A DNA stretch of 64,000 nucleotides from Agrococcus terreus (GTDB lineage Bacteria > Actinomycetota > Actinomycetes > Actinomycetales > Microbacteriaceae). The notes below the pieces were generated by a model. That model made no database searches. It worked only from the letters and a program-made list of their open reading frames with translations, and was not told where the DNA came from. A program made the position numbers and the translations under genes. The stretch covers positions 930,001-994,000 of the forward strand of contig NZ_BMLM01000001.1 in the NCBI RefSeq assembly GCF_014645235.1, in the 5' to 3' direction. The number at the start of each line of letters is the position of its first letter. Within the stretch, counting starts at the first letter, position 1. Below are positions 10,968 through 58,105 of this stretch, piece after piece.

Positions 10968-10995
10968 CGCACGCGCGTCGACGCTCAGGAGAGCC

Positions 10996-12782: not shown

Positions 12783-12783
<1 letters not shown>
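10996..12783 (+). CDS. ilvB: Acetolactate synthase large (catalytic) subunit
   Basis: ThDP-dependent enzyme joining pyruvate with pyruvate or 2-oxobutyrate, 595 residues. The catalytic glutamate lies in [14 protein letters not shown]. The FAD/ThDP regions follow, with the ThDP motif GDGCFQM...NN near the C-terminus ([13 protein letters not shown]). The ATG is preceded by AGGAGAG. It starts 28 bp after ilvD, and its stop overlaps the start of ilvN by one base (TGATG), which couples the two subunits. No leader peptide or attenuator is visible upstream. Confidence 0.97.
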
Positions 12784-14352
<1,569 letters not shown>

Positions 14353-43276: not shown

Positions 43277-43962
43277 CGGTGCTCCTGTCGGTGGGCGGCG
43301 CCGTCCTGGGGCGCGCGTCGGAGGTAGGCGTTGGGGGTCGCGAGGCGGTGGGCGCGCACGGCGAGCTCGATCTCGAGCGCGTCGGCGCCGGCCTCGACGA
43401 GGTCGAGGATGCGGTCGTGCTCGTCGACCGACTCGGCGGCGCGGGCGGGCACGAACGAGAAGGTGGAGGCGCGCAGCCGCGCGAGTCGGCGCCAGCCGCG
43501 GTCGACGAGGTCGCGCAGGTGCGCGTTGGGGCACGGGTCGGTGAGCGTGCGGTGCAGCAGCTCGTTCGTGCGGGTGAACGCGACGGGGTCGAGGTCGTCG
43601 AGCATGCCGCGCAGCTGCGCGTTGAGCTCGCGGGCGCGGGCGACGGCTGCGGCCGTGACGTAGGGCGCGGCGACGTGCGCGGCGGCGCCCTCGACGTACG
43701 AGAGGGTCTCCATCGTGTCCCAGTACTCGTGCTCGTCGATCTCGGCGACGCGGGCGCCAACGTTGCGCTCGAAGGTGACGAGGCCCTCCGCCTCCAGCCG
43801 CCGGATCGCCTCCCGCACGGGGACGACGCTCATGCCGAGCTCGGTGCCGATCGCGTCGAGCACGAGGCGCTGGCCGGGCGGGTAGGTGCCGTCGACGATT
43901 CGGTCGTGCACGACGCGGAAGGCGAGTTGCGACTTGCTCAGCTGCGCCGTCTCGGCGGTCAT
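43273..43962 (-). CDS. GntR-family (FCD-domain) regulator of the hpa operon
   Basis: A 229-residue repressor. The N-terminal winged helix reads AFRVVHDRIVDGTYPPGQRL, MSVVPVREAIRRLEAEGLV. The C-terminal all-helical FCD domain would bind a pathway acid, often with a metal (histidines in LLHRTLTDPCPNAHL and VDEHDRILDLVEAG). It lies inside the operon, overlapping genes on both sides by four bases. Two TCGTATACG palindromes between the divergent promoters fit the GT...AC core of GntR operators, so it probably represses the operon and the transporter. Confidence 0.9.
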   Translation of the reverse strand: MTAETAQLSKSQLAFRVVHDRIVDGTYPPGQRLVLDAIGTELGMSVVPVREAIRRLEAEGLVTFERNVGARVAEIDEHEYWDTMETLSYVEGAAAHVAAPYVTAAAVARARELNAQLRGMLDDLDPVAFTRTNELLHRTLTDPCPNAHLRDLVDRGWRRLARLRASTFSFVPARAAESVDEHDRILDLVEAGADALEIELAVRAHRLATPNAYLRRAPQDGAAHRQEHR

Positions 43963-45482
43963 GCGCCGGCCTCGGCCTCGTAGCGGGCGCGCCACTCGGC
44001 GTTCATCGGGAACAGCCCGTCGACCGGGTGGCCCTCCTCGACCATCCGCGCGATGAACGCCTCCTCGGCCTCCTGCGCGACGGCCTCGTCGGCGAGCTCC
44101 TGCGCGAAGCCGGGCGGGATGACGAGCAGGCCGTCGCCGTCGCCGACGACGATGTCGCCCGGCTGCACGGTGGTGCCGCCGCACGCGACGGTCTCGTCGT
44201 GCGACCACGGCACGTGGAGGCGGCCGAGCACCGCGGGATGGCCGCCGGCGTGCCAGGTGGGCACGCCGATCTCGGTCACGACGTCGAGGTCGCGCACGCC
44301 GCCGTCGGTGATGAGCCCCGCGGCGCCGAGGTGGCGGGCGCGCAGCGCCAGGATGTCGCCGAGGGTGCCGGAGCGGGTCTCGCCCCGCGCCTCGATGACG
44401 ACGACGTCGCCCGGGCGGAGCGAGTCGAAGAGCCGTTTCTGCGCGTTGTAGCCGCCGCCGTGGGCCGTGAAGAGGTCCTCGCGGTTGGGCACGTAGCGGA
44501 GCGTCCGGGCCGTGCCGACGAGGCGCTGCCCGGGCTGCGTGGGGCGGAGGCCGTCGATCGAGACGTTGTTCATCCCGCGCTTGCGCAGCAGCGACGAGAG
44601 GGTCGCGAGCGCGACGGTCGAGAGCTGCGCGCGGAGCGCGTCGGTGAGCACGGGCGCCTCGGACTCCTGGAAGTCGGCGAGCGGCCGGCCGGAGGCGTCG
44701 GACCACTGGTCGGGCGTGGGCTTCGGCTGGGCGGAGTGCGCCGGGAGGGCGTGGTCGCCGACGCGCACCGTGGTCGCGAGGCGGCCCGTGCTCACGCGCT
44801 CGCCGTCGGTCGTCGTCGCCGCGACCTCCACCTCGACCGTCTGGCCGGGCGCGAACGTCGAGGCGCCGGCCGGCGTGCCGGTGAGGATGACGTCGCCGGG
44901 GGAGAGGGTGAGGGTCTGCGAGAGGTCGGAGACGATCTCGGGCAGGGAGAAGAGCAGGGCCGCGGTCTCGTCGGCCTGCACGAGCTCGCCGTCGAGCCAG
45001 GTGCGCAGCTCGATGGCAGCGGGGTCGAGCCGGCCGGCGTCGAGCAGCGCGGGGCCGATCGGCGTCGCGCCGTCGCCGCCCTTCGAGCGCACGTTGGCGC
45101 CCTTGTCGGCCCAGCGGAGGTCGAAGACGCCGAGGTCGTTCGCGGCCGTGACGGCGGCGACGTGCGACCAGGCGTCCTCGGGGGAGACGCGGTGCGCCTC
45201 GCGGCCGATGACGAGCGCGAGCTCGCCCTCGAAGCCGAAGATCTCGGTGCCGGCGGGCACCGTCCACTCGCCGCCGGTCGAGAGGGAGGATGCGGGCTTC
45301 AGGAAGTAGCCGGGCGCCTCGGGCGTGCGGCCCTTCTGGGCGGCCCGCGCGGCGTAGGAGATGTGCATCGCGGCGACCGTGCCGGGCTTGGCGCCGAGCA
45401 GCGCCCAGGCGTCGCGGGCGGCGGCGGGGCCGCCGTGGGGGTGGGCGGCGCCGGCGGCGGGGAGGTGCGTCGATGCATCCAT
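43959..45482 (-). CDS. FAH-RraA fusion, probable HpaG-type isomerase/decarboxylase
   Basis: A 507-residue two-domain enzyme, first gene of the operon. Residues about 30-250 form a FAH/HpaG-like domain with metal ligands in FEGELALVIG (E85, E87) and ANDLGVFDLRW (D116), and GDVILTGTPAG. Residues about 285-490 form an RraA/HMG-aldolase-like domain with SGTLGD (371-376) and the metal-binding R397-D398 in ITDGGVRDLD. E. coli HpaG instead carries two FAH halves. The fusion may decarboxylate and isomerise the diacid; which half does what is unknown. TATACG and TTGACA upstream give a near-leaderless start. Confidence 0.85.
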   Translation of the reverse strand: MDASTHLPAAGAAHPHGGPAAARDAWALLGAKPGTVAAMHISYAARAAQKGRTPEAPGYFLKPASSLSTGGEWTVPAGTEIFGFEGELALVIGREAHRVSPEDAWSHVAAVTAANDLGVFDLRWADKGANVRSKGGDGATPIGPALLDAGRLDPAAIELRTWLDGELVQADETAALLFSLPEIVSDLSQTLTLSPGDVILTGTPAGASTFAPGQTVEVEVAATTTDGERVSTGRLATTVRVGDHALPAHSAQPKPTPDQWSDASGRPLADFQESEAPVLTDALRAQLSTVALATLSSLLRKRGMNNVSIDGLRPTQPGQRLVGTARTLRYVPNREDLFTAHGGGYNAQKRLFDSLRPGDVVVIEARGETRSGTLGDILALRARHLGAAGLITDGGVRDLDVVTEIGVPTWHAGGHPAVLGRLHVPWSHDETVACGGTTVQPGDIVVGDGDGLLVIPPGFAQELADEAVAQEAEEAFIARMVEEGHPVDGLFPMNAEWRARYEAEAGA

Positions 45483-45591: not shown

Positions 45592-45620
45592 TTGCCGAAG
45601 CGCGCAGGATCGTATACGTT
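45592..45620 (+). promoter_or_regulatory. MHS transporter promoter with GntR operator 2
   Basis: ATCGTATACGTT (45609-45620) repeats the first operator with one change in the right half. It overlaps a -10 (TACGTT, 45615-45620) that is 17 bp from TTGCCG (45592-45597). A shorter palindrome TCGTACGA at 45533-45540 lies between the two operators. Confidence 0.65.
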
Positions 45621-45674
45621 CCATGCCGAACCCCCTGGTCGCATCCGGGGCCCACCACTGACAAGGGAGTCAGC

Positions 45675-47081
45675 GTGTCCAGCACGACGCACACCTCCGC
45701 GAAGGAGCGGAACAAGGTCCTCGGCGCAGTCGTCGTCGGCACCACCATCGAGTGGTACGACTTCTTCATCTACGCCTTCATGGCGAACCTCGTGTTCGCG
45801 CAGCTCTTCTTCGAGCCGGCCGGGCCCGGGGTCGCGCAGATCCTGTCGCTCGTGACGATCGGCATCTCGTTCCTCTTCCGCCCGCTCGGCGCGTTCCTCG
45901 CCGGCCACTACGGCGACAAGCTCGGGCGCCGCCCGATGCTCGTCATCACGCTGCTCCTCATGGGCGTCGCGACGACGCTCGTCGGCGCGCTGCCGACCTA
46001 CGAGGCGGCCGGCATCATCGCGCCGATCCTGCTCATGATCCTCCGCATCCTGCAGGGCCTCTCGGCCGGCGGCGAGTGGGGCGGCGCCGTGCTCATGGCC
46101 ATCGAGCACGCGCCCGCCAACCGCCGCGGCCTCTTCGGCTCGTTCGTGCAGGCGGGCGTGCCGCTCGGCATGCTGCTCGCCACGGGCGTGCTCGCCGCGA
46201 TCCGCGCGATCTTCCCCGGCGACGCCTTCCTCGAGGTGGGCTGGCGCATCCCGTTCTTCCTGTCGATCATCCTCGTCGTGGTCGGCTACGTCGTGCGCCG
46301 CTCGGTCGACGAGTCGCCGGTGTTCCAGGAGATCAAGGAGACGGCGCAGGAGCAGTCGGCGCCCGTCAAGCAGGTCTTCGCGAAGTACGGCGCGATCATC
46401 CTCTTCGCGGCGATGATCTTCATGGCCAACAATGCCACCGGCTACATGACCACCGGCGGCTACGTGCAGGGCCTCGCCTCGCGCCCCGTCGACGCGACGC
46501 CTCCCGGCCTCGGCTTCGACCCGGTCGGCGTGCAGCTGGCGACCTTCGCTGGCTCGCTGTCGTGGCTCGTGTTCACGTTCCTCGGCGGCTGGCTCTCGGA
46601 CCGCATCGGCCGCAAGCGCCTGTACCTCATCGGCTGGGTGGTGCTCGCGATCACGATCGTGCCGCTCTTCCAGCTCGTCTACACGGGCGTCGGCGGCGTC
46701 GCCATCGCGACGATCCTGCTCGGCGCGGGCCTCGGCCTCACCTACGGCGCGCAGGCCGCCTGGTACGCGGAGTCGTTCCCGGCCTCGGTGCGCTTCTCGG
46801 GCGTCTCGATCGGCTACGCGATCGGTGCGATCATCGGCGGCGCCTTCGCCCCGACCATCGCGCAGGCGCTGCTGCAGTCGACCGGCTCGACGTGGGCGAT
46901 CGTCGGCTACCTGCTCTTCACGGTGGTCGTGTCGGTCATCGGCACGCTGCTCATGAAGGACCGCACGGGCATCCCGCTGTCGGTCGAGTTCGAGCGCACG
47001 GGCAAGTTCGACGCCTGGCGACGCGGCGACGCGTTCGAGGCCGTCTCGGAGGTCGACCGCGAGGCGATTCGCAAGGGCTGA
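45675..47081 (+). CDS. MHS-family MFS transporter, probable aromatic acid importer
   Basis: A 468-residue metabolite:proton symporter (ShiA/ProP/KgtP branch). Family landmarks are GTTIEWYDFFIYAF at the start, GHYGDKLGRRPML after helix 2, LQGLSAGGEWGGAVLM and FPASVRFSGVSIGYAIGA. It has 12 predicted helices and an extended cytoplasmic C-terminus. The GTG start has AGGGAG upstream. It is divergent from the hpa operon and shares the GntR operator pair, so it probably takes up the aromatic acid degraded by the operon. Confidence 0.9.
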   Translation: MSSTTHTSAKERNKVLGAVVVGTTIEWYDFFIYAFMANLVFAQLFFEPAGPGVAQILSLVTIGISFLFRPLGAFLAGHYGDKLGRRPMLVITLLLMGVATTLVGALPTYEAAGIIAPILLMILRILQGLSAGGEWGGAVLMAIEHAPANRRGLFGSFVQAGVPLGMLLATGVLAAIRAIFPGDAFLEVGWRIPFFLSIILVVVGYVVRRSVDESPVFQEIKETAQEQSAPVKQVFAKYGAIILFAAMIFMANNATGYMTTGGYVQGLASRPVDATPPGLGFDPVGVQLATFAGSLSWLVFTFLGGWLSDRIGRKRLYLIGWVVLAITIVPLFQLVYTGVGGVAIATILLGAGLGLTYGAQAAWYAESFPASVRFSGVSIGYAIGAIIGGAFAPTIAQALLQSTGSTWAIVGYLLFTVVVSVIGTLLMKDRTGIPLSVEFERTGKFDAWRRGDAFEAVSEVDREAIRKG

Positions 47082-47151: not shown

Positions 47152-47568
47152 CTACTGCTGTGCGTCGACGACCGCGTCGTCGGTCGGCGTGCCGCGCTCG
47201 TAGGGGCCGAAGAACAGGTCGGCGCCGTCCTCGGTGAGGGCGGTGCCGCTGGTGCGCTCGCCGTCGAACGCCTCGATCGTCGCGAAGCGGAGGCGGAGGC
47301 CGGGGTCGTCGGGATCGGCGACCTCGAGCGCCCAGCCGCCGTCGACCTCGACGAGCGACGGATCCGCGATCGTCACGCGCAGCAGCCCGCCGTGGCCGGT
47401 GAGCGTCACGCTGCCGCGGAAGGCGAGCGGCGCGTCGCCGGCGGGCCAGCGCACCCCGCCTGCGCCGTCGTCCTCGGCGCCGTCGGCGAGCGACACCGCG
47501 CCGTCGGCCATCCGGCGCACGTAGGCGAGCAGCGACGCCTTGATGCCCCAGTGCATGCCGCCGCTCAT
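47152..47568 (-). CDS. HtaA-domain protein without signal peptide
   Basis: A 138-residue protein resembling the HtaA domain of corynebacterial haem-uptake proteins: it opens with MHWGIKASLLAYVRRMADG, then RWPAGDAPLAFRGSV, LTGHGGLLRVTIADPSLV and WALEVADPD. No signal peptide or anchor is visible, so it appears cytoplasmic, unlike HtaA itself. It overlaps the LysR gene by four bases (ATGA) and is likely co-transcribed with it. A link to the haem-containing P450 nearby is speculative. Confidence 0.7.
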   Translation of the reverse strand: MSGGMHWGIKASLLAYVRRMADGAVSLADGAEDDGAGGVRWPAGDAPLAFRGSVTLTGHGGLLRVTIADPSLVEVDGGWALEVADPDDPGLRLRFATIEAFDGERTSGTALTEDGADLFFGPYERGTPTDDAVVDAQQ

Positions 47569-48500
47569 GCCGCCGCCCCCGTCGCGACGGTCCAGCGCTG
47601 CGCGCGGGCGAAGCGGATGAGCTCGGCGGTGCGCTCGGTGGGCTCCGAGCCCGCGGGCCAGACGACCTCGACGCCGACGGGCGGCACCGCCGGCTCGATC
47701 TCGCGGATGGCGAGCGGCCGCCCCTCGAAGCTCACCGGCACGGCGGGCCGCTGCACGAGCACGCCGTAGCCGAGCCCGCGTCCCACGAGCGCGCGCACCG
47801 CCTCCGCGCTCTGCACCCGGTGCCGCACCCGCGGCGCGACCCCCGCGGCGGCGAAGAGCGACAGCGTGTGCTGGGTCGACGGCGGCGCGTCGAGCAGCAC
47901 GAGGTCGCGCTCGGCGAGGTCGGCGAGGCGCACCCGCTCCTGCCCCGCGACCGGGTCGTCGGCCGCGACGACGACGTGCGCGATGAGCTCGAACAGCGTC
48001 GCCCGCCGCGGCTGGCCGTGCACGAGCGTGTCGTAGGTGAACGCGACGTCGAGCTCGCCCGACTCCAGCCGGTGCTCGAGCCGGTCGTGCGTCGCCTCGA
48101 CCACCTCGAGCGAGACGCGCGGATGCTGCTGGCCGAACCGCTCGAGCAGCGGCGGCAGGATCGTGGGCGCGAGCGTGGGGTAGCAGCCGATCGCGATGGG
48201 GCCGACGAGCTCGCCCGGTGCGCCGCGCAGCGAGCCCTCGAGCTCGCGGGATGCGGCGAGCAGCGTGCGGGCGCGGGCGACGACCTCCGCGCCGCTGCTC
48301 GTGAGCGTCATCCCGCGCGCGGGCCGCCGCACGGCGAGCCGCGTGCCGAGCGAGCGCTCGAGCTCCGACAGCGCGTCCGAGACGGCCGAGGGCGAGACGC
48401 GCAGCCGGGCCGCGGCGCCGGCGACGGTGCCCTCGTCGGCGGCGCAGACGAGGAACGACAGCTGCCGCAGGGTGAAGGCCGGGGCGTCCAGCGCATCCAT
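47565..48500 (-). CDS. LysR-family transcriptional regulator
   Basis: A 311-residue LysR protein. The N-terminal helix-turn-helix is in TLRQLSFLVCAADEGTVAGAA and VSPSAVSDALSELERSLG; the effector domain spans the rest (PIAIGCYPTLAPTILPPLL, DVAFTYDTLVHG). The second of two ATGs was chosen because GGAG lies six bases before it; the earlier one adds four residues. It is divergent from the P450 fusion gene with a 96-bp gap, the usual position for a LysR regulator and its target. Confidence 0.88.
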   Translation of the reverse strand: MDALDAPAFTLRQLSFLVCAADEGTVAGAAARLRVSPSAVSDALSELERSLGTRLAVRRPARGMTLTSSGAEVVARARTLLAASRELEGSLRGAPGELVGPIAIGCYPTLAPTILPPLLERFGQQHPRVSLEVVEATHDRLEHRLESGELDVAFTYDTLVHGQPRRATLFELIAHVVVAADDPVAGQERVRLADLAERDLVLLDAPPSTQHTLSLFAAAGVAPRVRHRVQSAEAVRALVGRGLGYGVLVQRPAVPVSFEGRPLAIREIEPAVPPVGVEVVWPAGSEPTERTAELIRFARAQRWTVATGAAA

Positions 48501-48596
48501 GTTCGACTCCATCGACGAAGTTGCGGCAGATGATCCGCTTTCCCTCAGCATGCCCGGGCGGGAGGATCGGGGCAAGGCTTCGACGAGGAGGACCCG

Positions 48597-51545
48597 ATGA
48601 GCACCGACGCTCCGGTCGCCGACTGGGTGACGATCCCCGACCTGTACCGCGACCCGTTCCCGATCTACGAGCGGCTGCGCGCGGAGGGCGGCGTGCACTG
48701 GGTGCCGGCGGTGGGGCGCTACCTGATCACCACGTACGAGGCTGTGCACGCGACCGAGCTCGACCAGGAGACGTTCTCGGCGAACGAGCAGGGCTCGCTG
48801 CAGATCCGCGCGATGGGGCACTCCATGCTGCGGCGCGACGATCCGGAGCACCGGCTCGAGCGCACCGCGTGGCAGCCGGCGCTTCGACCGGGCGTCGTGA
48901 AGCGGGTCTGGCGCTCGCGGTTCGAGGCCATCGCCGAGCGGTACCTCGGCGAGATGGTCGAGCGCGGCACGAGCGGCGACCTCATCTGGGACTTCGCGGC
49001 GCCGTTCGCGGCCGAGAGCCTCCGCGAGATCATCGGCCTGCCCAACGTGACGCAGCAGCAGATGCAGCGCTGGTCGCAGACCCTCATCGACGCCACGGGC
49101 AACTACGCCGACGACCCCGACGTGTGGGCGAAGGGGGAGCGGTCGTTCGACGAGGTCGACGCGGCGCTGGCCGAGATCCTGCCGTGGCACGCCGCCAACC
49201 CGAACGAGTCGCTGCTCTCGCAGCTGCTCCGCATCCCCGACTACGAGATGCCGATGGAGCGGATCCGCGCCAACGTGAAGATGACGATCGGCGGCGGCCT
49301 CAACGAGCCGCGCGACGCGCTCGGCGTCGCCGCGTGGGGGCTGCTGACGCACCCGGAGCAGCGCCGCGCCGTCGAGGGCGACCCGAGCCTCCACCACGCG
49401 GTGTTCGACGAGACGCTGCGGTGGATCGCGCCCATCGGCCTGTACTCGCGGCAGGTGACGCGCGACACCGTGCTCGCCGGCACGCGCCTGCCCGCCGGGG
49501 CGCGACTGGGCATCTGCATCCTCTCGGCCAACCGCGACGAGCGCGTGTGGGATGCCCCGGAGCGCTTCGACGTGCGCCGCGAGGTCAAGCCGCACCTCGC
49601 CTTCTCGAAGGGCGTGCACGTGTGCCTCGGCGCGTGGGTCGCTCGCGCGCAGGTCGCCGACGTCGCCCTGCCGATGCTGCTCGGGCGGCTCGAGGGGCTC
49701 GAGCTCGACCCCGATCGCGAGGCGCGGATCGGCGGCTGGGTGTTCCGCGGCATGCTCGACCTGCCGGTGCGGTGGCGCTCGGTGCGCTCGGGCGGCGCTG
49801 TGGCGGCCGCGGCGCCGGCCGCCGGGCCCGCGCCCCGCGTCGCCGTCGTCGGCTCCGGCCCGGCGGGCTGCTTCTCGGCGCAGGCGATCCGGCGCGCGCT
49901 GCCCGCCGCGTCCATCGACGTGCTCGAGGCGCTCCCCGTGCCGTACGGGCTCGTGCGCTCGGGCGTGGCCGCCGACCACCGCGGCACGAAGACCGTCGCG
50001 GCGCAGTTCGACCGGCTCTTCCTGCACGAGGGCGTGCGGTTCCGCGGCGGCGTGCGGCTCGGCACCGACGTCGCGCTCGACGAGCTGCGAGCAGCGTACG
50101 ACGCGGTCGTGCTCGCCACGGGCCTCCGCGCCGACCGCTCGCTCGGGGTGCCGGGCGACGACCTGGCGGGCGTGCACGGCGCCGGCCGCGTCACGCGGCT
50201 GCTCAACGCGCATCCGGACGAGGGCGAGGCGCCGTCGCTCGGCGAGCGCGTCGCGGTCGTGGGGATGGGCAACGTCGCGATGGACGTCGCGCGGCTCCTG
50301 GCGCGCGACGCGGCGGGCTTCGAGGGCTCCGACGTCGACGATGAGGCGCACGCGCGGCTCGCGGGCTCGCTGCGGACGATCGACGTCGTCGGTCGGAGCG
50401 CGCCGGAGGACGCCCGCTTCGATCCGGTCATGGTGCGCGAGCTCGCGGGCCTGCCGGGCGTGCGGCACCGCGTGCACGGCGCCGACCTCGCGCAGCCGGA
50501 GGGGCGGGACGCGCGCGTCGACGCGGTGCGGGCGCTCGCTGCGGGCGGGGATGGTGCGGCCCGGGTGGAGGTGCGCTGGTGGTTCGGGCACGCGCCGGTG
50601 CGCATCGAGGCTGATGGCACCGTCCGCCGGCTCGTGCTGCGGGGCCCAGACGGCGAGGCTGCGCTCGACGTGGATGCGGTGGTCACCGCGGTCGGCTTCG
50701 CCGCGGACGACGACGCGCCGGTGCCTGCGGGCGCGCATCCCGACGGCCGGGTCGAGCCGGGCCTCTACGCCGCCGGCTGGCTGCGGCGCGGGCCGCGCGG
50801 CACGATCCCCGACCAGCGCGCCGACGCGCGCGAGCTCGCGCGGCTGCTGCAGGACGACCTCGCGTCCGGGGCCGTGGCGGTCGGCGCGCCCGGGCTGTCG
50901 GACGTTGCCGGGGAGGTGGGCTTCGACGGCTGGCGCCGCATCGACGTGCGCGAGCGGCTGGGGGCGGCGCCCGGCCGCGAGCGCGCGAAGCTGCGCGACG
51001 TCGCCGGGATGCGAGAGGCTGCGGCCGACCTCGGCATCCCGCTGTCGGAGGTCGCGTCGGAGACCCGCACGGGCGAGGGCGGCGGCCTGCCGGTGACGGT
51101 GCTGTTCGGCACCGAGTCGGGCGGCGCCGAGCTCGTCGCCGACGAGGTCGCGCGGGCCATCGCCGACCGCGCCGACGTCGAGGTGGTCGATCTCGCCGAA
51201 GCGACTCCTGATGCGCTCGACGCCTCGCGCCTCCACCTCGTCGTCTGCTCCACCTACGGCGACGGCGAGGCGCCGACCTCGGCGAGGGCGTTCCTCGCGG
51301 CGCTCGGCGAGCGGCCCGACCTGTCGGGGCTCCGGTACGCGATGCTCGGGATGGGCGACCGCAGCTACGCGCGCACGTACTCGCGGGGCAGCGAGCTCGT
51401 CGACGAGGCGCTCGCGGCGTGCGGCGCCGAGCGGGTGGGCGAGTACGGCCGCCACGACGCGGGCGGCGCGACGCCGGCGGCGGAGGCTGCGCGCGAGTGG
51501 GCCGACGGCGTGCTGGCCGCACTCGCGCTCGCCCCCGCCCGCTGA
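48597..51545 (+). CDS. Self-sufficient cytochrome P450: P450-FprA-type reductase-flavodoxin fusion
   Basis: A 982-residue three-domain monooxygenase. Residues 1-400 are a P450: haem cysteine C343 in FSKGVHVCLG, ExxR at 272-275, and an unusual I-helix GGGLNEP where the usual Thr is Glu237-Pro238. Residues about 410-800 are an FprA/adrenodoxin-reductase-like FAD domain (VVGSGPAGCFSAQ, PYGLVRSGVAADHRGTK, NADPH motif GMGNVAMDVARLL at 556, GWLRRGPRGTI). Residues about 830-975 are an FMN flavodoxin (FGTESGGAELVADE, STYGDGEAP, GMGDRSYA). The FAD and FMN groups would pass electrons from NAD(P)H to haem without a ferredoxin. The ATG has AGGAGG upstream. Confidence 0.92.
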   Translation: MSTDAPVADWVTIPDLYRDPFPIYERLRAEGGVHWVPAVGRYLITTYEAVHATELDQETFSANEQGSLQIRAMGHSMLRRDDPEHRLERTAWQPALRPGVVKRVWRSRFEAIAERYLGEMVERGTSGDLIWDFAAPFAAESLREIIGLPNVTQQQMQRWSQTLIDATGNYADDPDVWAKGERSFDEVDAALAEILPWHAANPNESLLSQLLRIPDYEMPMERIRANVKMTIGGGLNEPRDALGVAAWGLLTHPEQRRAVEGDPSLHHAVFDETLRWIAPIGLYSRQVTRDTVLAGTRLPAGARLGICILSANRDERVWDAPERFDVRREVKPHLAFSKGVHVCLGAWVARAQVADVALPMLLGRLEGLELDPDREARIGGWVFRGMLDLPVRWRSVRSGGAVAAAAPAAGPAPRVAVVGSGPAGCFSAQAIRRALPAASIDVLEALPVPYGLVRSGVAADHRGTKTVAAQFDRLFLHEGVRFRGGVRLGTDVALDELRAAYDAVVLATGLRADRSLGVPGDDLAGVHGAGRVTRLLNAHPDEGEAPSLGERVAVVGMGNVAMDVARLLARDAAGFEGSDVDDEAHARLAGSLRTIDVVGRSAPEDARFDPVMVRELAGLPGVRHRVHGADLAQPEGRDARVDAVRALAAGGDGAARVEVRWWFGHAPVRIEADGTVRRLVLRGPDGEAALDVDAVVTAVGFAADDDAPVPAGAHPDGRVEPGLYAAGWLRRGPRGTIPDQRADARELARLLQDDLASGAVAVGAPGLSDVAGEVGFDGWRRIDVRERLGAAPGRERAKLRDVAGMREAAADLGIPLSEVASETRTGEGGGLPVTVLFGTESGGAELVADEVARAIADRADVEVVDLAEATPDALDASRLHLVVCSTYGDGEAPTSARAFLAALGERPDLSGLRYAMLGMGDRSYARTYSRGSELVDEALAACGAERVGEYGRHDAGGATPAAEAAREWADGVLAALALAPAR

Positions 51546-51588: not shown

Positions 51589-51673
51589 GTCCGCCGCGCC
51601 GTGGTCTCGACTCGGGCGGCGCCGTCCGGCTCGGCCGGAGAGGGGACGGCGCCGCCCGGCTCGACCGGGTGAG
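51589..51673. repeat. Dispersed repeat, copy B1, with 14-bp hairpin
   Basis: It matches 58255-58349 apart from point changes and a 10-bp insertion in the latter. It holds a perfect 14-bp stem (51614-51627 with 51644-51657), so it can also end transcription of the P450 gene. It shares the GTGGTCTCGA core with copies A1 and A2. The 240-bp gap 51546-51785 has no other feature I can support. Confidence 0.7.
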
Positions 51674-51785
51674 CGAACCGGTGCGTCGTGCGCGCGTCGG
51701 CAAGCGCCGTGCGCGCCTCGCGTGGTCGCGCCCCCGGCCGCGGCGGAGGATGAGCGGGTCCCCCTTCGATGGAGAGCGAGGAACC

Positions 51786-53189
51786 ATGGAGACCTACGAG
51801 TCCCTGCTCGGCGCAGTGCGCGCCGACGACGGCATCCCGGTGATCGATCCGGCCACGGGCGAGGTCTTCGCCCACGCGCCCGCCTCGACGCCCGACGACC
51901 TCGAGCGCGCGATCGCCGCCGCCCGCGCCGCGCAGCCCGCCTGGGCCGCGCTGTCCGACCAGGAGCGCCGCGCCGCGCTCACCGCCGCGGCCGACGAGGT
52001 GGAGGCCAACCAGGAGGCGCTCGCGCAGCTCATCGCGCGCGAGCAGGGCAAGCCGCTCAGCGGCCCCGGCGCCCGCTTCGAGGCAGGCGCCGTCGTCGCA
52101 TGGCTGCGCGCGACGATCGCGACCGAGCTCGAGCCGGAGGTCGTCGTCGACGACGGGCAGGCCAAGGCGACCGTCTACTACCGGCCCATCGGCCTCGTCG
52201 GCGCGATCGGGCCCTGGAACTGGCCCGCGATGATCGCCACCTGGCAGTACGCGCCCGCGCTGCGGATGGGCAACGCGGTCGTCATGAAGCCGAGCGAGCA
52301 CACGCCGCTCAGCGTGCTCGCCACCGCGCACCTCGTGAACCGGCACCTGCCGGAGGGTCTGCTCACGGTGCTCGCGGGCGACCGCGACCTCGGCGAGGCG
52401 CTCACGGGCCACCCGGCCTTCGGCAAGATCATGTTCACCGGATCCGCCCGCACCGGGCAGGCGATCATGCGCGCCTCGGCCGACAACCTCACCCGCCTCA
52501 CGCTCGAGCTCGGCGGCAACGACCCCGGCATCGTGCTGCCCGACGTCGATCCGAAGGCCATCGCCGAGGGCCTCTTCTGGGGCGCCTTCATCAACACCGG
52601 GCAGACGTGCGCCGCGCTCAAGCGCCTCTACGTGCACGAGGACGTGTACGACGACGTCGTGCGCGAGCTCGTCGCCGTCGCCGGCGCCATGCCGATGGGA
52701 TCGGGTGTCGACGAGGCGAACGTGCTCGGCCCCCTCACCACCGAGCAGCAGTTCGGGATCGTCGACCGGCTCGTCGAGGAGGCGAAGGCCGCGGGCGGCC
52801 GGGTGCTGCTCGGCGGCGAGCCCGACCGCGACGCGAAGGGCTGGTTCTACCCGGCGACCCTCGTCGACGGCATCGGCGACGACGCCGGGCTCGTGGCCGA
52901 GGAGCAGTTCGGCCCCGCGCTGCCGATCCTGCGCTGGTCGGACGTCGACGACGTCGTCGAGCGAGCGAACCGCGGCGAGGCGGGGCTCGGCGCGAGCGTC
53001 TGGTCGTCGGATCCGGCCAGGGCGCGCGAGGTCGCGGCGCGCATCCAGGCCGGCTCGGTGTGGATCAACTCGCACGGCACGATCCACCCGATGGCGCCGT
53101 TCGGCGGCGTGAAGGGCTCGGGCTTCGGCCTCGAGTTCGGCGTCGAGGGCCTCAAGGCCGTCGCGGTGCCGCAGGTCATCCACGGCTGA
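51786..53189 (+). CDS. Aldehyde dehydrogenase, probable arylacetaldehyde or succinate-semialdehyde type
   Basis: A 467-residue NAD(P)-dependent aldehyde dehydrogenase. Catalytic residues are all visible: asparagine in GPWNWPAM, glutamate in LELGGNDPG, cysteine in NTGQTCAALKR. Position between the P450 fusion and the amine oxidase suggests it oxidises the arylacetaldehyde made by the latter (FeaB-like). Succinate semialdehyde from HpaI is another candidate substrate. The ATG at METYESLL was chosen because upstream in-frame starts run into Arg-rich, unlikely sequence; GCGAGGAA serves as the ribosome-binding site. Confidence 0.88.
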   Translation: METYESLLGAVRADDGIPVIDPATGEVFAHAPASTPDDLERAIAAARAAQPAWAALSDQERRAALTAAADEVEANQEALAQLIAREQGKPLSGPGARFEAGAVVAWLRATIATELEPEVVVDDGQAKATVYYRPIGLVGAIGPWNWPAMIATWQYAPALRMGNAVVMKPSEHTPLSVLATAHLVNRHLPEGLLTVLAGDRDLGEALTGHPAFGKIMFTGSARTGQAIMRASADNLTRLTLELGGNDPGIVLPDVDPKAIAEGLFWGAFINTGQTCAALKRLYVHEDVYDDVVRELVAVAGAMPMGSGVDEANVLGPLTTEQQFGIVDRLVEEAKAAGGRVLLGGEPDRDAKGWFYPATLVDGIGDDAGLVAEEQFGPALPILRWSDVDDVVERANRGEAGLGASVWSSDPARAREVAARIQAGSVWINSHGTIHPMAPFGGVKGSGFGLEFGVEGLKAVAVPQVIHG

Positions 53190-53257: not shown

Positions 53258-55339
53258 TCAGCGGATCGCCACGTGGTCCTCGCCGTCGTGGCCGTGGTGG
53301 CCGTCGTGCCCGTCGTGGGCGGCACCATCGTGCCCGTGCCCGTGCCCGCCGCAGTCGCAGCCGCCGCCCTCGCAGCCGCAACCGTCGCCGTCGTGGCCGG
53401 CCTCCGGCACGTCGAGCGTGGGGTTCCGGTCGAGGAACCCGACGGGCTTGAGCCAGAAGCCGGAGTAGTCGACGGGCATGATCGGCCAGTCCTCGGGCCG
53501 CGGGATGTGCGTGAGCCCGAAGGAGTGCCAGACGACCAGGTCGTCGCCGTCGACGTCGCCGCCCTCCGCCACGAACGCGGGCAGGCCGTCGCCACCGGCG
53601 TGCTGGTTGGGGTAGCGGCCGGCCGGGAACGTCTCGTCGTCGCGGTGCGCGGTGACCCACAGGTGCTGCGTCGCGAAGGTGCCGCGCGCGTGCACGGTCG
53701 AGGCGGGATCGGCCATGAGGGTCGCGCGCGCCTCGGGGATGAGCTGGTACTCGGTGGGCCTGCCGAGCCCGTTGCGCCGCGACGCGGAGCCGATGTGCCA
53801 CGTGCGCCCGAGCGCGCCGTCGCCGAGCCTCGACCCCGCCTCGGTCACGCGGTCGCGGCGGTGGCCGAAGGCGTTGCCCCACGGGTTCTCGGGCCCCATC
53901 GGGATGCGCACGAGGTCGACCTGGTCGACGTAGTTGTCGGTGCCGTCGACGTCCATGTCGAGCCGCGCGCAGAAGATGTGCTGGTGGACGGGCGCGAAGA
54001 GGCCCGTCGCGATCTCGGTCGCGTGCCGCTGCACGGTGCCGGGGAGGTCGGCGCCGCAGAAGACGATGCCGGTGGCCTTGGCCTCGAACTGGATCGAGCC
54101 GTCGAGGTAGAGGTACCAGAAGAAGCCGTAGTCGTAGTTGCCGACGGTCGCGAAGTACGAGATGACGAGCCGGCGCGAGCGCCGGCCGTGGGTCGTCTCG
54201 CCGTCGAGCTCGCGGTGCTTCCAGAGGATCCCGAAGTCCTCCTCGTGCATGCAGATCGCGCGAGGGATCGTGAACGCCTCGCCGGTGTCGCCCGCGAGGT
54301 GCGCGTCGAAGTAGTGGATGGCGCCGAGGCAGTCGCAGCCGAGCGCGAGCGAGTTCGCGTTCTTGCCGAGGTGGTACTCGCCGGCGTCGAAGTAGCTGAT
54401 CCAGCGCCGCGTCTCGCTCGTGTCGCCGTACGGCACGACCATCTCCGGCACGCTCGCGCGGTGGACGACGCTGCGGAGCTCCTCGCCGTCCTGCCAGCCG
54501 AGCTCGTGCAGCACGAGCCCCTCCCGCATCGAGAACCCGACGCGGAAGCGCCACTGCTCCCAGGTGACGTGGCTGCCGTCGACCGTGAAGCTCGGCCCCT
54601 CGGGCATCGTGATCTCGATGGGCTTGAGGCTCGTGCGGCGCGCGCCGACCGAGGCGTCGTCGTAGTTGCCGTCGATGTCGGGCACGGGCACCTGCCGCTC
54701 GTCGACGAGCTTCTCGACCTTCCGCCCGGTCACGTCGACGAGCAGCACGAGGCCCTCGACGGGGAACGACCACGGGTTGTCGCCCGCGTGCGGCGGCAGG
54801 AAGGTGAGCGAGCGCATCATGCGCCGGCCGACCTCGTCGGCCTCGCCGAACTGGCCGGGGGCGAGCGGCACCACGAGCGCTCGGTCCATGTGGTCGAGGC
54901 CGCGCGAGGCCATCGCGGCGCGCCAGCCTCGATCCGCCTTGACGATCTCGTCGACGAGCTCGTACTCCTCGAAGAGGTACTGCGGCTGGCCGTAGGGCGC
55001 CTCGCCGGTCGGCAGATCCTCGATCGACGCCACCCGGTCCTCGGATGCCGACGTGCCGAGCGCAACCACCGCCTCCCGCACGAGCCCCGTGCTCGTGTCG
55101 AGGAGCGTCGAGAGCACGCGGCGGCCGAGCGGATCGCCGGGCGCCCACGCGGCCAGCGCGGCCTTCGGCGGGTCGAGCAGCAGCTGCATCGGGAAGCGCG
55201 TGTCGTCGCGCAGCGCGCCGGCCGCCTCGAGCGCGGCGCGCACCCGGCCGATCTCGCCCGGGGTGAGCGCGTCGAGCGGATGCGCGGCCTCGGTCAGGTG
55301 CGAGTCGCGGGCGCCGTGGGTGTGCGTGGCATCGGGCAT
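53258..55339 (-). CDS. Copper amine oxidase (tyramine/phenylethylamine type) with His/Cys-rich tail
   Basis: A 693-residue TPQ-containing oxidase that turns a primary arylamine into aldehyde, ammonia and peroxide. The TPQ tyrosine is Y402 in TVGNYDYGF. The catalytic base lies in YFDAGEYHLGKNANS, and the copper histidines are in HQHIFCARLD and SFGLTHIPRPEDWP. It follows Arthrobacter phenylethylamine/histamine oxidases closely. No signal peptide is seen. The last 45 or so residues are Gly/His/Asp-rich with about ten histidines and four cysteines (CGC and CDC pairs), absent from typical family members I know. The ATG has GAGGAG upstream; TAGCGT near 55370 could be a -10. Confidence 0.93.
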   Translation of the reverse strand: MPDATHTHGARDSHLTEAAHPLDALTPGEIGRVRAALEAAGALRDDTRFPMQLLLDPPKAALAAWAPGDPLGRRVLSTLLDTSTGLVREAVVALGTSASEDRVASIEDLPTGEAPYGQPQYLFEEYELVDEIVKADRGWRAAMASRGLDHMDRALVVPLAPGQFGEADEVGRRMMRSLTFLPPHAGDNPWSFPVEGLVLLVDVTGRKVEKLVDERQVPVPDIDGNYDDASVGARRTSLKPIEITMPEGPSFTVDGSHVTWEQWRFRVGFSMREGLVLHELGWQDGEELRSVVHRASVPEMVVPYGDTSETRRWISYFDAGEYHLGKNANSLALGCDCLGAIHYFDAHLAGDTGEAFTIPRAICMHEEDFGILWKHRELDGETTHGRRSRRLVISYFATVGNYDYGFFWYLYLDGSIQFEAKATGIVFCGADLPGTVQRHATEIATGLFAPVHQHIFCARLDMDVDGTDNYVDQVDLVRIPMGPENPWGNAFGHRRDRVTEAGSRLGDGALGRTWHIGSASRRNGLGRPTEYQLIPEARATLMADPASTVHARGTFATQHLWVTAHRDDETFPAGRYPNQHAGGDGLPAFVAEGGDVDGDDLVVWHSFGLTHIPRPEDWPIMPVDYSGFWLKPVGFLDRNPTLDVPEAGHDGDGCGCEGGGCDCGGHGHGHDGAAHDGHDGHHGHDGEDHVAIR

Positions 55340-55400: not shown

Positions 55401-56408
55401 TCAGCGCAGGCCGCTTGCCGTCGCCAGCGCGCGTGCGCCGAGCGGCTCCGCCTCCGGCTCGAGCGCGGTCGCCTGCCGGTACTCGCTCGGGCTCTGCTCG
55501 AAGGTGGCGCGGAACAGGCGCGAGAAGTGCGCCGGGTTGACGAGGCCCCAGCGCGACGCGATCGCCGCGATCGTCTGGTCGTGGAGCGTCGCGTCGGCGA
55601 GGTCGCGGCGGATGTGCTCGAGCCGCCGCTCCCGGATCCAGCCGGCGACGGTGATGCCTCGCTCGGCGAAGACGGCGTGCAGGTGCCGGGTCGAGATGAA
55701 GTGCGCCTTCGCGATCTGGGCGGGGGAGAGGTCGGGGTCGCCGAGCATGCGGTCGATCGTGCCGAGGATCTCGTGGAGCAGCTGCCGCTTCGGGTCCTGC
55801 TGCACGCCCTGCTGCAGCTCGGAGGAGACGAGCGTCATGAGCAGGTCGAGCGCGGTGCGGGCGAGCCGCTGGCCGTTCGAGCCCGGCAGCTCCTCGAGGC
55901 TGCCGGCGAGCCCCGCGAGGAACGGGTTGACGACCCTGCCGAGCGGCGATTCGAGGGGGAAGGCCGTGGCGGTGACCGCCGCGAGCTCCTCGCGCGGCAG
56001 GTCGAGGTAGCCGTGCGGGAAGGTGAGCACGAGCAGGCTCGTGGTGCCGTCGAAGCGCAGGGTGTAGGGCCGCGAGGTGTCGTAGATGGCGATGTCGCCG
56101 GGGTGCAGCAGCGCGACGCGGCCGTCCTGCTCGATGACCTCGTCGCCCGAGAGCTGCAGGCTCACCTTGATGAGGTCGCTCGCGCCCCGCCGCACGAGCT
56201 TCGGCGTGCGGGCGACGATGCACGCCGTGTGCTCGATGCGGAACACCGACACCTGCCCGACGTCGGTGCGGGCGATGCGGCCCTGGAACGGCTCCTCCGA
56301 GAGCGGGTGGATGTCGAGCGCGACGAAGCTCGCCGTCACCTGGCGCCGCCACTCCGCGATGCCGATGGGCTCGCCGTCGAGCGGAGGGAAGTCGAAGGTC
56401 GATCGCAC
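55401..56408 (-). CDS. AraC-family regulator, FeaR-like
   Basis: A 335-residue activator. The N-terminal half looks like the AraC_binding_2 domain found in FeaR-type regulators (VSLQLSGDEVIEQDGR, GDIAIYDTSRPYTL, LVLTFPHGYLDLP). The C-terminal half is a double helix-turn-helix (FISTRHLHAVFAERG, IAAIASRWGLVNPAHFSRLFRATF). E. coli FeaR activates the amine oxidase and aldehyde dehydrogenase genes, so the same role is likely here: the amine oxidase lies 61 bp downstream on the same strand. The GTG start has AGGGGG upstream. It is divergent from the APC permease. Confidence 0.88.
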   Translation of the reverse strand: MRSTFDFPPLDGEPIGIAEWRRQVTASFVALDIHPLSEEPFQGRIARTDVGQVSVFRIEHTACIVARTPKLVRRGASDLIKVSLQLSGDEVIEQDGRVALLHPGDIAIYDTSRPYTLRFDGTTSLLVLTFPHGYLDLPREELAAVTATAFPLESPLGRVVNPFLAGLAGSLEELPGSNGQRLARTALDLLMTLVSSELQQGVQQDPKRQLLHEILGTIDRMLGDPDLSPAQIAKAHFISTRHLHAVFAERGITVAGWIRERRLEHIRRDLADATLHDQTIAAIASRWGLVNPAHFSRLFRATFEQSPSEYRQATALEPEAEPLGARALATASGLR

Positions 56409-56569
56409 GCTGCCCCCTCTGTGCCGGTCAGCATAGCCGCGCGCGACGCGCGCGCGAGGGCCGCGCCACGGCGATCGTGCGCGCACCGTCAAGCCCCCGT
56501 CGGCCCCGCGCAACGCGGGCGGGTTCAGGATCGCTGCGAACCCGCACCGTGCCGGCGAAGGAGCTGACC

Positions 56570-58105
56570 ATGGCGACCGCATCCGCGACCCCCACCCCCG
56601 CGACCCCCACCTCCGCGAGCGCGGCGCCCGGGGAGGGCGCTGTCCGGCTCGGCGCGGGAGGCGCCGGGCTCGGCGTGCCGGCGATCGTGCTCATGATCAT
56701 CGCCGCCTCCGCGCCCCTCACGGTGGTCGCGGGCGGCGTCACCACGAACTACGCCGTCTCCGGCCTCACCGGGGTGCCGCTCGGCATGCTGCTGCTGGCG
56801 GGCGGCCTGCTCGTCTACGCGGTCGGCTACGTCGCGATGAGCCGCCACATCCGCAACGCCGGCGCGTTCTACGCGTACATCGCCCGCGGCCTCGGACCCG
56901 AGGCTGGCGTGGCCGGGGCGTGGACCGCGCTCGTTGCCTACAACGCCATGCAGATCGGCATCTACGGGATGCTCGGCTTCACCGCGTCGAGCTTCGTCAC
57001 CGCGAAGACCGGGGCCGAGATCCCGTGGTGGGCGTTCGTGCTCGTCACGATCGCGCTCATCGCCGTGCTCGGCGTCAACCGCGTCGACGTCTCCGTGAAG
57101 GTCGTCGGCGTGCTCGTGGCGCTCGAGTTCGTGGCGGTGCTCGTGTACGACGTCGTCTCGCTCGCCGTCGCGCCCGAGGGCGTGTCGGCGGCCGGCTTCG
57201 CGCCCGGCGACCTCCTGGCGCCGGGCATCGGCGTCGTGCTCGTCATGGGCATCGCCGCGTTCATGGGCTTCGAGTCGGGCGCGATCTACACCGAGGAGGC
57301 GCGCGATCCGGTGCGCACCGTGCCGCGCGCGACCTTCACGGCCGTCATCGTCATCGGCGCGTTCTACGCGTTCAGCGCGTGGGCGATGCTCATCGGATCG
57401 GGTCCGAGCGCGACGGTCGGCGCGGCCCAGGAGAACGGCCCCGACCTGCTCTTCGTGCAGCTGGGGGAGCGGGTGGGGCCGATCGTCGCGGACCTGGCGC
57501 AGGTGCTCTTCATCTCGAGCCTCCTCGCCGCCCTCATCTCGTTCCACCACGCCGTCGCCCGCTACGCGTTCGCGCTCGGGCGCGAGCACATGCTGCTGCC
57601 GTCGTTCGGCCGCGTGAACGGCCGCGGCGCGCCCGCGCTCGGATCGCTCGCGCAGACCGCGCTCGCGGCGGTCGTCGTCATCGCCTTCGCGATCGCGGGC
57701 GCCGGCAGCGAGCTCGGCCCGCTCTACCCGGTGCTCACGCTCTTCACGTGGCTCACGAACCTCGGCGCGCTCGGCCTCATCGTGCTCATGGCCGTCGTGT
57801 CCGTCGCGGTCATCGGCTTCTTCGCCCGCGACCGGCGAGGGGTCGGCGCGTGGACGCGGCTCGTCGCGCCCGCGATCGCGGCGGCCTTCTTCGCGACGGT
57901 GACGGTGCTGACGCTCGCGAACTGGAACCTGCTGCTCGGCGAGGCCGAGACCGGCTTCCTCACCTTCGCGCTGCCGGGGCTCCTGGTGGTCGCAGCGGTC
58001 GTCGGGCTCGCGATCGCCGTGCAGGCGAAGCACCGCCGCCCGCACGCCTTCGAGTCGATCGGCACGGGCGCGGTGCCGGTCGCGCGCGCCGACGCCGCCC
58101 GCTGA
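56570..58105 (+). CDS. APC-family amino acid/amine permease
   Basis: A 511-residue transporter with 12 predicted helices. Landmarks are APLTVVAGGVTTNYAVSG in helix 1, RHIRNAGAFYAYIARGLG, FMGFESGAIYTEEARDP and RVNGRGAPALGS. The first 30 residues are Ala/Thr/Pro-rich and probably disordered. Position beside the FeaR-like regulator and the amine oxidase suggests it imports the arylamine (tyramine or a relative). The ATG has AAGGAGCTG upstream. Confidence 0.87.
   Translation: MATASATPTPATPTSASAAPGEGAVRLGAGGAGLGVPAIVLMIIAASAPLTVVAGGVTTNYAVSGLTGVPLGMLLLAGGLLVYAVGYVAMSRHIRNAGAFYAYIARGLGPEAGVAGAWTALVAYNAMQIGIYGMLGFTASSFVTAKTGAEIPWWAFVLVTIALIAVLGVNRVDVSVKVVGVLVALEFVAVLVYDVVSLAVAPEGVSAAGFAPGDLLAPGIGVVLVMGIAAFMGFESGAIYTEEARDPVRTVPRATFTAVIVIGAFYAFSAWAMLIGSGPSATVGAAQENGPDLLFVQLGERVGPIVADLAQVLFISSLLAALISFHHAVARYAFALGREHMLLPSFGRVNGRGAPALGSLAQTALAAVVVIAFAIAGAGSELGPLYPVLTLFTWLTNLGALGLIVLMAVVSVAVIGFFARDRRGVGAWTRLVAPAIAAAFFATVTVLTLANWNLLLGEAETGFLTFALPGLLVVAAVVGLAIAVQAKHRRPHAFESIGTGAVPVARADAAR

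What the first reader, a model, noticed from the sequence alone, without database searches (positions are those of the whole stretch)
48597..51545. New-looking self-sufficient P450: P450-FprA reductase-flavodoxin in one chain
The three domains run in the order haem, GR-type FAD, FMN. Known one-chain P450s join a CPR-type diflavin reductase (BM3 type) or an FMN/2Fe-2S reductase (RhF type). XplA has a flavodoxin joined to a P450, but its adrenodoxin-reductase-like partner XplB is a separate protein. Here all three parts are joined and their key motifs are intact: haem Cys343, ExxR, both FAD/NADPH glycine loops and the flavodoxin loops. I do not know of a described class with this order. The I-helix has Glu-Pro where most P450s have an acid-Thr pair, a change also present in the guaiacol O-demethylase GcoA as I recall it. 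O-demethylation of a methoxylated arylacetate is therefore a reasonable guess.
Basis: partly seen in the sequence, partly recalled or inferred. Interest (0 to 1): 0.9.

Follow-up and report, generated by a model that had tools for sequence, protein, structure and literature searches.

The report
P450 fused to its electron chain
A bacterium encodes, in one protein, a P450 enzyme that probably strips methyl groups from phenylacetate-type aromatics together with both flavin proteins that feed it electrons, a natural one-piece design kept in dozens of related bacteria that I could not find described.

Summary
One open frame (48597-51545, 982 aa) carries a P450, an adrenodoxin-reductase/FprA-type FAD domain and a flavodoxin domain, cofactor motifs intact. 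It is no assembly error: 35 distinct genomes (window included) carry the same uninterrupted fusion, with inter-domain linkers of very different length. The P450 half is not an orphan: it is 60% identical to CYP1232A24 of Arthrobacter (PDB 6g71). A review says the CYP1232A24 authors proposed a cluster with flavodoxin and flavodoxin reductase. I recall, but could not read, that CYP1232A24 demethylates 3,4-dimethoxyphenylacetate and homovanillate. Unfused P450 relatives have a [2Fe-2S] ferredoxin gene beside them in 19 of 19 loci examined; no such motif appeared in 34 fused loci, one of them barely testable. On the tree the fusion has one origin (89/91) with 6g71 as sister. Beside the window gene lie a homoprotocatechuate ring-cleavage cluster and an amine oxidase. 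Best reading: a self-sufficient aromatic O-demethylase making homoprotocatechuate, built by fusing a class III P450 system. The architecture is not in the ten-class scheme I read, nor in my searches of open-licence papers. Substrate, cofactor preference and electron transfer are inferred.

The parts
48597..51545 (+). One-chain P450 - AdR/FprA-type FAD reductase - flavodoxin, 982 aa
48597..49790 (+). P450 haem domain (residues 1-398), CYP1232A24-like, haem Cys343, ExxR, I-helix Glu237-Pro238
   Evidence: 60% identity to 6g71 (237 of 395 columns); Foldseek rank 1 is 6g71, titled CYP1232A24
49791..49826 (+). Linker 1 (about 12 residues, Ala/Gly-rich); length varies strongly between orthologues
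   Evidence: 17 distinct anchor-to-anchor lengths in 33 of 36 sequences measured
49827..51080 (+). GR-fold FAD/NAD(P)H reductase domain, AdR/FprA/XplB-type
   Evidence: 1cjc 161 bits, 1lqt 145.5 bits; Foldseek ranks 2-8 are FprA and AdR
51090..51542 (+). Flavodoxin (FMN) domain; closest solved relative by sequence is cindoxin (4oxx)
47565..48545 (-). Divergent LysR-type regulator; a LysR match lies within about 1 kb of the P450 in 34 of 35 fused loci (not in L126)
45600..47081 (+). MFS metabolite/H+ symporter (start uncertain); relatives lie next to fused and unfused P450 loci elsewhere; likely substrate importer
51669..53189 (+). Aldehyde dehydrogenase (start uncertain), probably arylacetaldehyde to arylacetate
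53258..55339 (-). Copper amine oxidase (primary-amine oxidase)
   Evidence: PF01179 469 bits; PRK11504 803 bits, cut-off 651
55401..56582 (-). AraC-type regulator, FeaR-like (below FeaR cut-off; start uncertain)
   Evidence: 154.5 bits, cut-off 199
56567..58105 (+). Amino-acid/amine permease (start uncertain)
43959..45482 (-). HpaG-like FAA hydrolase fused to an RraA-like domain
43273..43962 (-). GntR-type regulator (named from sequence; not scanned by profile)
   Evidence: translation; matches in L004, L125, L126
41786..43300 (-). HpaE, 5-carboxymethyl-2-hydroxymuconate semialdehyde dehydrogenase (start uncertain)
   Evidence: TIGR02299 646.8 bits, cut-off 638.35
40608..41735 (-). HpaD, 3,4-dihydroxyphenylacetate 2,3-dioxygenase
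   Evidence: TIGR02295 410.1 bits, cut-off 321.4; coordinates
39781..40608 (-). HpaH-like hydratase (start uncertain; name from position; only PF01557 tested)
38927..39790 (-). HpaI-like 4-hydroxy-2-oxoheptanedioate aldolase (best model, below cut-off)
   Evidence: TIGR02311 274.7 bits, cut-off 368.8

Best explanation
The gene encodes a natural self-sufficient aromatic O-demethylase. NAD(P)H gives a hydride to FAD in the GR-fold domain; single electrons pass to FMN in the C-terminal flavodoxin domain, which docks on the proximal face of the P450 domain and reduces the haem twice per turnover; O2 is activated, the methoxy methyl is hydroxylated and leaves as formaldehyde. The substrate is most likely a methoxylated phenylacetate such as homovanillate, and the product homoprotocatechuate (3,4-dihydroxyphenylacetate), cleaved by the HpaD-E-G-H-I enzymes encoded beside it; the amine oxidase and aldehyde dehydrogenase next door would supply arylacetates from phenethylamines such as 3-methoxytyramine or tyramine. 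The fusion arose once, from a CYP1232A-type P450 working with a separate flavodoxin and flavodoxin reductase. Shown here: gene, domains, motifs, conservation, neighbours, tree. Inferred: electron path, product, substrate, unfused ancestor. Recalled and not seen: the measured reactions of CYP1232A24.
For: Domains and motifs. 35 distinct genomes with one uninterrupted frame and 17 distinct linker-1 lengths, all in frame (33 of 36 measured), so read-through looks selected. P450 part 60% identical to CYP1232A24; the O-demethylases SyoA and GcoA are among the next matches (9ia1, between them, is named only 'Cytochrome P450'). The review PMC9687028 says the CYP1232A24 authors proposed a cluster of two P450s with flavodoxin and flavodoxin reductase. 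Flavodoxin part closest to cindoxin, the FMN partner of P450cin. hpa genes beside the fusion in the window and in L004, L125 (stretch ends in HpaH) and L126. In family f7, 16 of 16 genomes with this P450-reductase-flavodoxin locus (15 in one frame, 1 with a frame change) have HpaD, against 27 of 44 others (Fisher p = 0.0026, not corrected for kinship).
Against: No biochemistry. Substrate facts for CYP1232A24 are recalled; the paper is not held. In Micrococcaceae HpaD is in 308 of 345 genomes, so the link carries no weight there; 2 of the 16 genomes with the fusion in that sample, G901 (88% complete) and G923 (91% complete, fusion cut by its contig end), lack it. HpaD lies in only 3 of the fetched fused loci. 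The Arg-Arg pair that binds NADPH phosphate in FprA/AdR (role recalled) is Arg-Ser here. The AlphaFold model is weak in parts of the P450 domain, pTM 0.56, so it says nothing on domain docking. One of 37 copies has a frame change between P450 and reductase. The single origin has 89/91 support, under the program's 95/80 mark.
Confidence: 0.66

Rival explanations
1. The fusion is real and self-sufficient, but it hydroxylates rather than demethylates: for example a 4-hydroxyphenylacetate 3-hydroxylase that replaces HpaBC and supplies homoprotocatechuate from tyramine.
For: Same product needed by the hpa cluster; primary-amine oxidase next door. The only HpaB-family gene found in the genome lies about 175 kb away, scores far below both HpaB cut-offs and has an FtsE-like gene as neighbour, so a dedicated 4-hydroxyphenylacetate hydroxylase is not established.
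Against: 60% identity to CYP1232A24, recalled as an O-demethylase; O-demethylases among the next matches; the Glu-Pro I-helix of GcoA is kept in 36 of 36.
Confidence: 0.2
2. The three parts are made as one chain but do not work as a closed unit: the haem domain takes electrons mainly from other carriers, or the reductase-flavodoxin part serves other P450s.
For: Related reductase-flavodoxin pairs accompany other P450s as separate genes (L011, L012, L140-L143, L243).
Against: Fusion kept in 35 genomes, cofactor motifs invariant in the 17 aligned; no ferredoxin motif within 1.5 kb downstream in 34 fused loci, of which L004 had only about 75 bases left. The PF00067 search of the window genome found only one other P450.
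Confidence: 0.09
3. The joined frame is an assembly or annotation artefact of separate genes.
For: One relative (L202) has the P450 and reductase in different frames; distant three-gene versions with the same gene order exist (L012, L243).
Against: 35 distinct genomes agree; linkers of many lengths stay in frame; fused sequences form one clade in both P450 and reductase trees.
Confidence: 0.01

Closest known systems
CYP1232A24 of Arthrobacter sp. (PDB 6g71; Klenk et al. 2019, doi 10.1093/jb/mvz010, known to me through PMC9687028)
   Same: P450 domain 60% identical; a review says the authors proposed flavodoxin and flavodoxin reductase as partners; recalled substrate class of methoxyphenylacetates
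   Different: 6g71 is a 405-residue P450 chain; here P450, reductase and flavodoxin are one 982-residue chain. I did not see the native 6g71 gene or its neighbours.
P450cin / cindoxin / cindoxin reductase (class III)
   Same: FAD reductase to FMN flavodoxin to P450; the flavodoxin domain's best PDB match is cindoxin
   Different: Three components on separate proteins; different P450 and substrate (1,8-cineole, recalled)
XplA / XplB (class VI)
   Same: The separate reductase of strain DN22 (XplB as I recall it) is 41.6% identical over its matched part, with the same Arg-Ser in place of Arg-Arg; flavodoxin joined to the P450
   Different: There the flavodoxin part is at the N-terminus of the P450 gene and the reductase is a separate gene
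P450 BM3 / CYP102 (class VIII)
   Same: One chain with P450, FAD and FMN parts
   Different: BM3 has a CPR-type reductase (PMC9687028 passages; order haem-FMN-FAD recalled); here a GR-fold reductase in the order haem-FAD-FMN
P450 RhF / CYP116B (class VII)
   Same: Self-sufficient, P450 at the N-terminus
   Different: Its reductase has FMN and [2Fe-2S]; no Fer2 match here
GcoA, SyoA, AgcA (CYP255A O-demethylases)
   Same: Aromatic O-demethylases (PMC13101465 passages); Glu-Pro I-helix seen in GcoA and SyoA alignments
   Different: 28-31% identity for GcoA and SyoA; GcoA's reductase is a different separate protein (recalled)

Membership tests
CYP1232 family, A subfamily | Over 40% (family) and over 55% (subfamily) identity to a named member (rule recalled) | tested here: met
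   60% to 6g71 over 395 columns; formal naming not checked
CYP1232 family, A subfamily | Groups with the named member on a tree | tested here: met
   6g71 is sister to the fused clade, 100/99; midpoint root, 6g71 flagged as a long branch
CYP1232 family, A subfamily | O-demethylation of methoxylated phenylacetates | not testable with these tools
   needs assay; reaction recalled
Class III P450 system (P450cin type) | FAD reductase + flavodoxin + P450 | tested here: met
Class III P450 system (P450cin type) | Separate polypeptides | tested here: not met
   one frame in 35 genomes
Class VI (XplA) | Flavodoxin N-terminal to P450, reductase separate | tested here: not met
   flavodoxin at the C-terminus, reductase fused; compared with L242
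Class VIII (BM3) | CPR-type diflavin reductase with FNR fold | tested here: not met
   reductase matches AdR/FprA (GR fold) by sequence and Foldseek; no FNR-type family in Pfam
Class VII (CYP116B) | C-terminal FMN/[2Fe-2S] reductase | tested here: not met
   no Fer2 domain in the 982 aa
Class I P450 system | Partner [2Fe-2S] ferredoxin gene beside the P450 | tested here: not met
   no ferredoxin motif in 1.5 kb downstream of 34 fused loci (L004: about 75 bases only); present in 19 of 19 unfused relatives

The most novel reading that the evidence does not exclude
This is an undescribed class of natural self-sufficient P450: haem - GR-fold (adrenodoxin-reductase/XplB-type) FAD - flavodoxin in one chain. 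It arose once in a demethylase lineage whose relatives in like surroundings use a ferredoxin, so nature swapped the whole electron chain of one enzyme and then fused it.
Probability: 0.7. Interest if true: 0.72.

Novelty: new variant of a known kind. Interest (0 to 1): 0.64.

Why it matters
One-chain P450s are prized in biocatalysis because they need no added partner. Engineers fuse flavodoxin to flavodoxin reductase and tune the linker by trial (PMC5575160, start of abstract in the listing). Here is a natural fusion that includes the P450, with 35 homologues offering a set of linkers. The review PMC9687028 (passages) says it is unknown why fusions of bacterial flavodoxin reductase and flavodoxin did not contribute to the diflavin module; this is a fusion of that general kind, though with an AdR/FprA-type reductase. 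Unfused, ferredoxin-linked relatives in like gene surroundings make redox-partner switching directly testable within one P450 group. For catabolism of methoxylated aromatics it gives a candidate self-sufficient demethylase for homovanillate-type compounds.

Tried and rejected
Assembly artefact: rejected. BM3-, RhF- and XplA-type architecture: rejected (see Membership tests). Enrichment of HpaD with the fusion in Micrococcaceae: uninformative, HpaD in 308 of 345. Finding the native 6g71 gene: not found among 60 + 345 genomes (best 63%) or plasmids (best listed 46.5%). Fused reductase-flavodoxin on plasmids: 46 of 72,556 records match, 4 cover 80% or more of the query; H21 and H22 and H23 (listing only) have separate genes; the fourth, H24, is unannotated and was not opened. 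Literature: 'CYP1232' gave 0 papers; '1232A24' gave one, the review; one search listed 25 of 42 papers. The second P450 of the genome (L002) is not fused to such domains in the stretch seen.

Errors of mine: one search translated the reductase in the wrong frame (its zero hits mean nothing; redone). The HpaD and HpaH queries were out of frame; only one search is used for them. Alignment A2 held a junk row and was not used. In one search, 3 of 36 sequences for linker 1 and 10 of 36 for linker 2 did not fit my anchor patterns and were left out of those counts. The 19 unfused loci are a part: 17 of the 53 genomes without the fusion, plus G804 (f7) and G171 (f8). Six duplicate loci (L214, L215, L216, L220, L223, L225) were dropped before counting.
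Full report
WHAT IS THERE. The window holds a single open frame at 48597-51545 (+), 982 aa. Pfam finds P450, Pyr_redox_2 and Flavodoxin_1 in that order, all above cut-off. Against the PDB the first 400 residues match 6g71_A with 554 bits, the middle part matches adrenodoxin reductase (1cjc, 161 bits) and M. tuberculosis FprA (1lqt, 145.5 bits), and the last part matches cindoxin best (4oxx, 97.7 bits) and BM3's FMN domain next (1bvy, 52.6 bits). An AlphaFold model (mean pLDDT 75, pTM 0.56, low in parts of the P450) gives Foldseek rank 1 = 6g71, titled 'Structure of CYP1232A24 from Arthrobacter sp.', ranks 2-8 = FprA and adrenodoxin reductase, and from rank 9 on mostly GcoA, with SyoA and other P450s. 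I make no claim on how the domains dock.

IT IS REAL AND CONSERVED. One scan of genome contigs (80 of 139 relatives kept) returned eight fused relatives, one of them cut by its contig end. A sample of 396 genomes of the order gave 18 with a match, 10 of them full-length in one open frame, the window's included. A sample of 396 genomes of the phylum gave 19 with a match, of which only the window's own is full-length. These two searches show only two scored candidates per genome, so counts are lower bounds. With the 6g71 sequence as query, one family (f7, unnamed) gave 17 of 60 genomes with a match: 15 fused in one frame, G790 with a frame change, G804 unfused. Another family (f6) gave 69 of 345, of which 15 are fused in one frame and one is cut by its contig end. 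I take f6 as Micrococcaceae because the contigs of L003, L005-L008 and L010, labelled so, lie in it. After removing six duplicate loci I count 35 distinct genomes, window included, with P450, reductase and flavodoxin in one frame without a stop. Seventeen aligned sequences keep the cofactor motifs; haem Cys, ExxR and GGGLNEPRD were found in 36 of 36. The stretch between P450 and reductase anchors varies from 25 to 87 residues with 17 distinct lengths in 33 of 36 sequences measured: many insertions and deletions, all in frame, so translation through the linker looks selected.

WHERE IT CAME FROM. The P450 part is 60% identical to 6g71 (237 of 395 columns). On a maximum-likelihood tree of 65 P450 rows (37 fused-type rows, counting L008 and L202; 27 unfused; 6g71) the fused rows form one clade (89/91, in 90% of bootstrap trees) with 6g71 as sister (100/99), and all 27 unfused rows lie outside (midpoint root; long branches, 6g71 among them, flagged by the program). 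Reductase domains of the 37 fused-type rows also form one clade against 14 separate reductases (SH-aLRT 99, quick tree). The nearer unfused P450 relatives have like surroundings: a LysR gene, P450, then a [2Fe-2S] ferredoxin (Fer2) and usually a reductase (Pyr_redox_2 + Reductase_C; both scanned by Pfam in L203 only), and often a related MFS transporter. A ferredoxin motif follows the P450 in 19 of 19 such loci (54-59% to the window P450; 2.5 kb searched); a long reductase frame was picked up in 17 of the 19. No such motif was found within 1.5 kb downstream in 34 fused loci, of which L004 had only about 75 bases left. Eight more distant unfused P450 rows were also tested: two have the motif, and one of the six without it (L145) stops at its contig end. 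So the fused lineage appears to have replaced a ferredoxin chain by a flavodoxin chain. The intermediate state would be CYP1232A24, for which PMC9687028 says Klenk et al. proposed a cluster of two P450s with flavodoxin and flavodoxin reductase (passages read). I did not see that paper nor the native gene. Three-gene versions with the same order P450-reductase-flavodoxin exist with distant P450s: L012, Leucobacter soli (33%), and L243, a Rhodococcus pyridinivorans plasmid (24%).

HOW IT MOST LIKELY WORKS. NAD(P)H to FAD to FMN to haem follows from the domain families (P450cin is the model: NADPH to cindoxin reductase to cindoxin to P450cin, as stated in PMC9687028). The reductase keeps GxGNVA but has Arg-Ser where FprA and adrenodoxin reductase have Arg-Arg; the reductase of strain DN22 (XplB as I recall it) shares Arg-Ser, as does L244, so this may be common in flavodoxin-coupled members, and cofactor preference must be measured.

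WHAT IT LIKELY ACTS ON. Upstream lie HpaD (410 bits, cut-off 321) and HpaE (647, cut-off 638), with HpaG-, HpaH- and HpaI-like genes, i.e. the homoprotocatechuate meta-cleavage route; downstream lie an aldehyde dehydrogenase, a copper amine oxidase, a FeaR-like regulator and a permease. HpaD lies beside the fusion also in L004, L125 and L126 (79-88% identity) and in none of the other fused loci as fetched. In f7, 16 of 16 genomes with the P450-reductase-flavodoxin locus have HpaD against 27 of 44 others (p = 0.0026, not corrected for kinship); in f6 HpaD is near universal (308 of 345; 14 of the 16 with the fusion) and the test says nothing. I recall from the abstract of Klenk et al. that CYP1232A24 demethylates 3,4-dimethoxyphenylacetate and homovanillate to 3,4-dihydroxyphenylacetate; this fits the neighbourhood, but I could not verify it. 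GcoA and SyoA are aromatic O-demethylases (PDB titles with guaiacol and syringol; PMC13101465, passages) and share the I-helix Glu-Pro. The rival, 4-hydroxyphenylacetate 3-hydroxylation, is kept at 0.2 because the only HpaB-family gene found in the genome is remote and scores far below both HpaB cut-offs.

NOVELTY. A 2024 review lists ten P450 redox classes (PMC11173547, passages): none is haem - GR-fold FAD - FMN in one chain. Five literature searches listed no paper whose title or opening abstract describes it (two searches found none at all, one search listed 25 of 42); the library holds open-licence papers only, so this is weak evidence of absence. Each part is known; the joined form, its apparent single origin and the partner swap are what is new. 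I file it as a new variant of a known kind: a class III-type chain made self-sufficient.

Noticed in passing
L202 (G790), P450 at 11826-13019 (-), reductase at 10493-11752 (-): One relative has the P450 and the reductase-flavodoxin part in different frames; sequencing error, pseudogene or a true split cannot be told apart.
   Followed up: partly
L134-L136, L203-L213, L238-L241: Unfused CYP1232-like P450s form a class I type operon (LysR, P450, [2Fe-2S] ferredoxin, usually a reductase, often MFS), common in the family taken as Micrococcaceae.
   Followed up: yes
window 43959-45482: FAA-hydrolase domain fused to an RraA-like domain in one 507-aa protein (NCBIfam PRK12764, above cut-off), in the hpa cluster.
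   Followed up: no
L012:10001-13076: Leucobacter soli has P450, reductase and flavodoxin as three separate, overlapping genes in the same order as the fusion; its P450 is only 33% identical.
   Followed up: partly
G000:C1:1153349-1153918 (L153:7539-8936): HpaB-family gene beside an FtsE-like gene, far below both HpaB cut-offs; possibly another flavin monooxygenase.
   Followed up: partly
L141 (G311) and L142 (G042): Genomes that hold the fusion also hold separate reductase-flavodoxin gene pairs near a different P450, so flavodoxin-linked P450 systems recur in this order.
   Followed up: no
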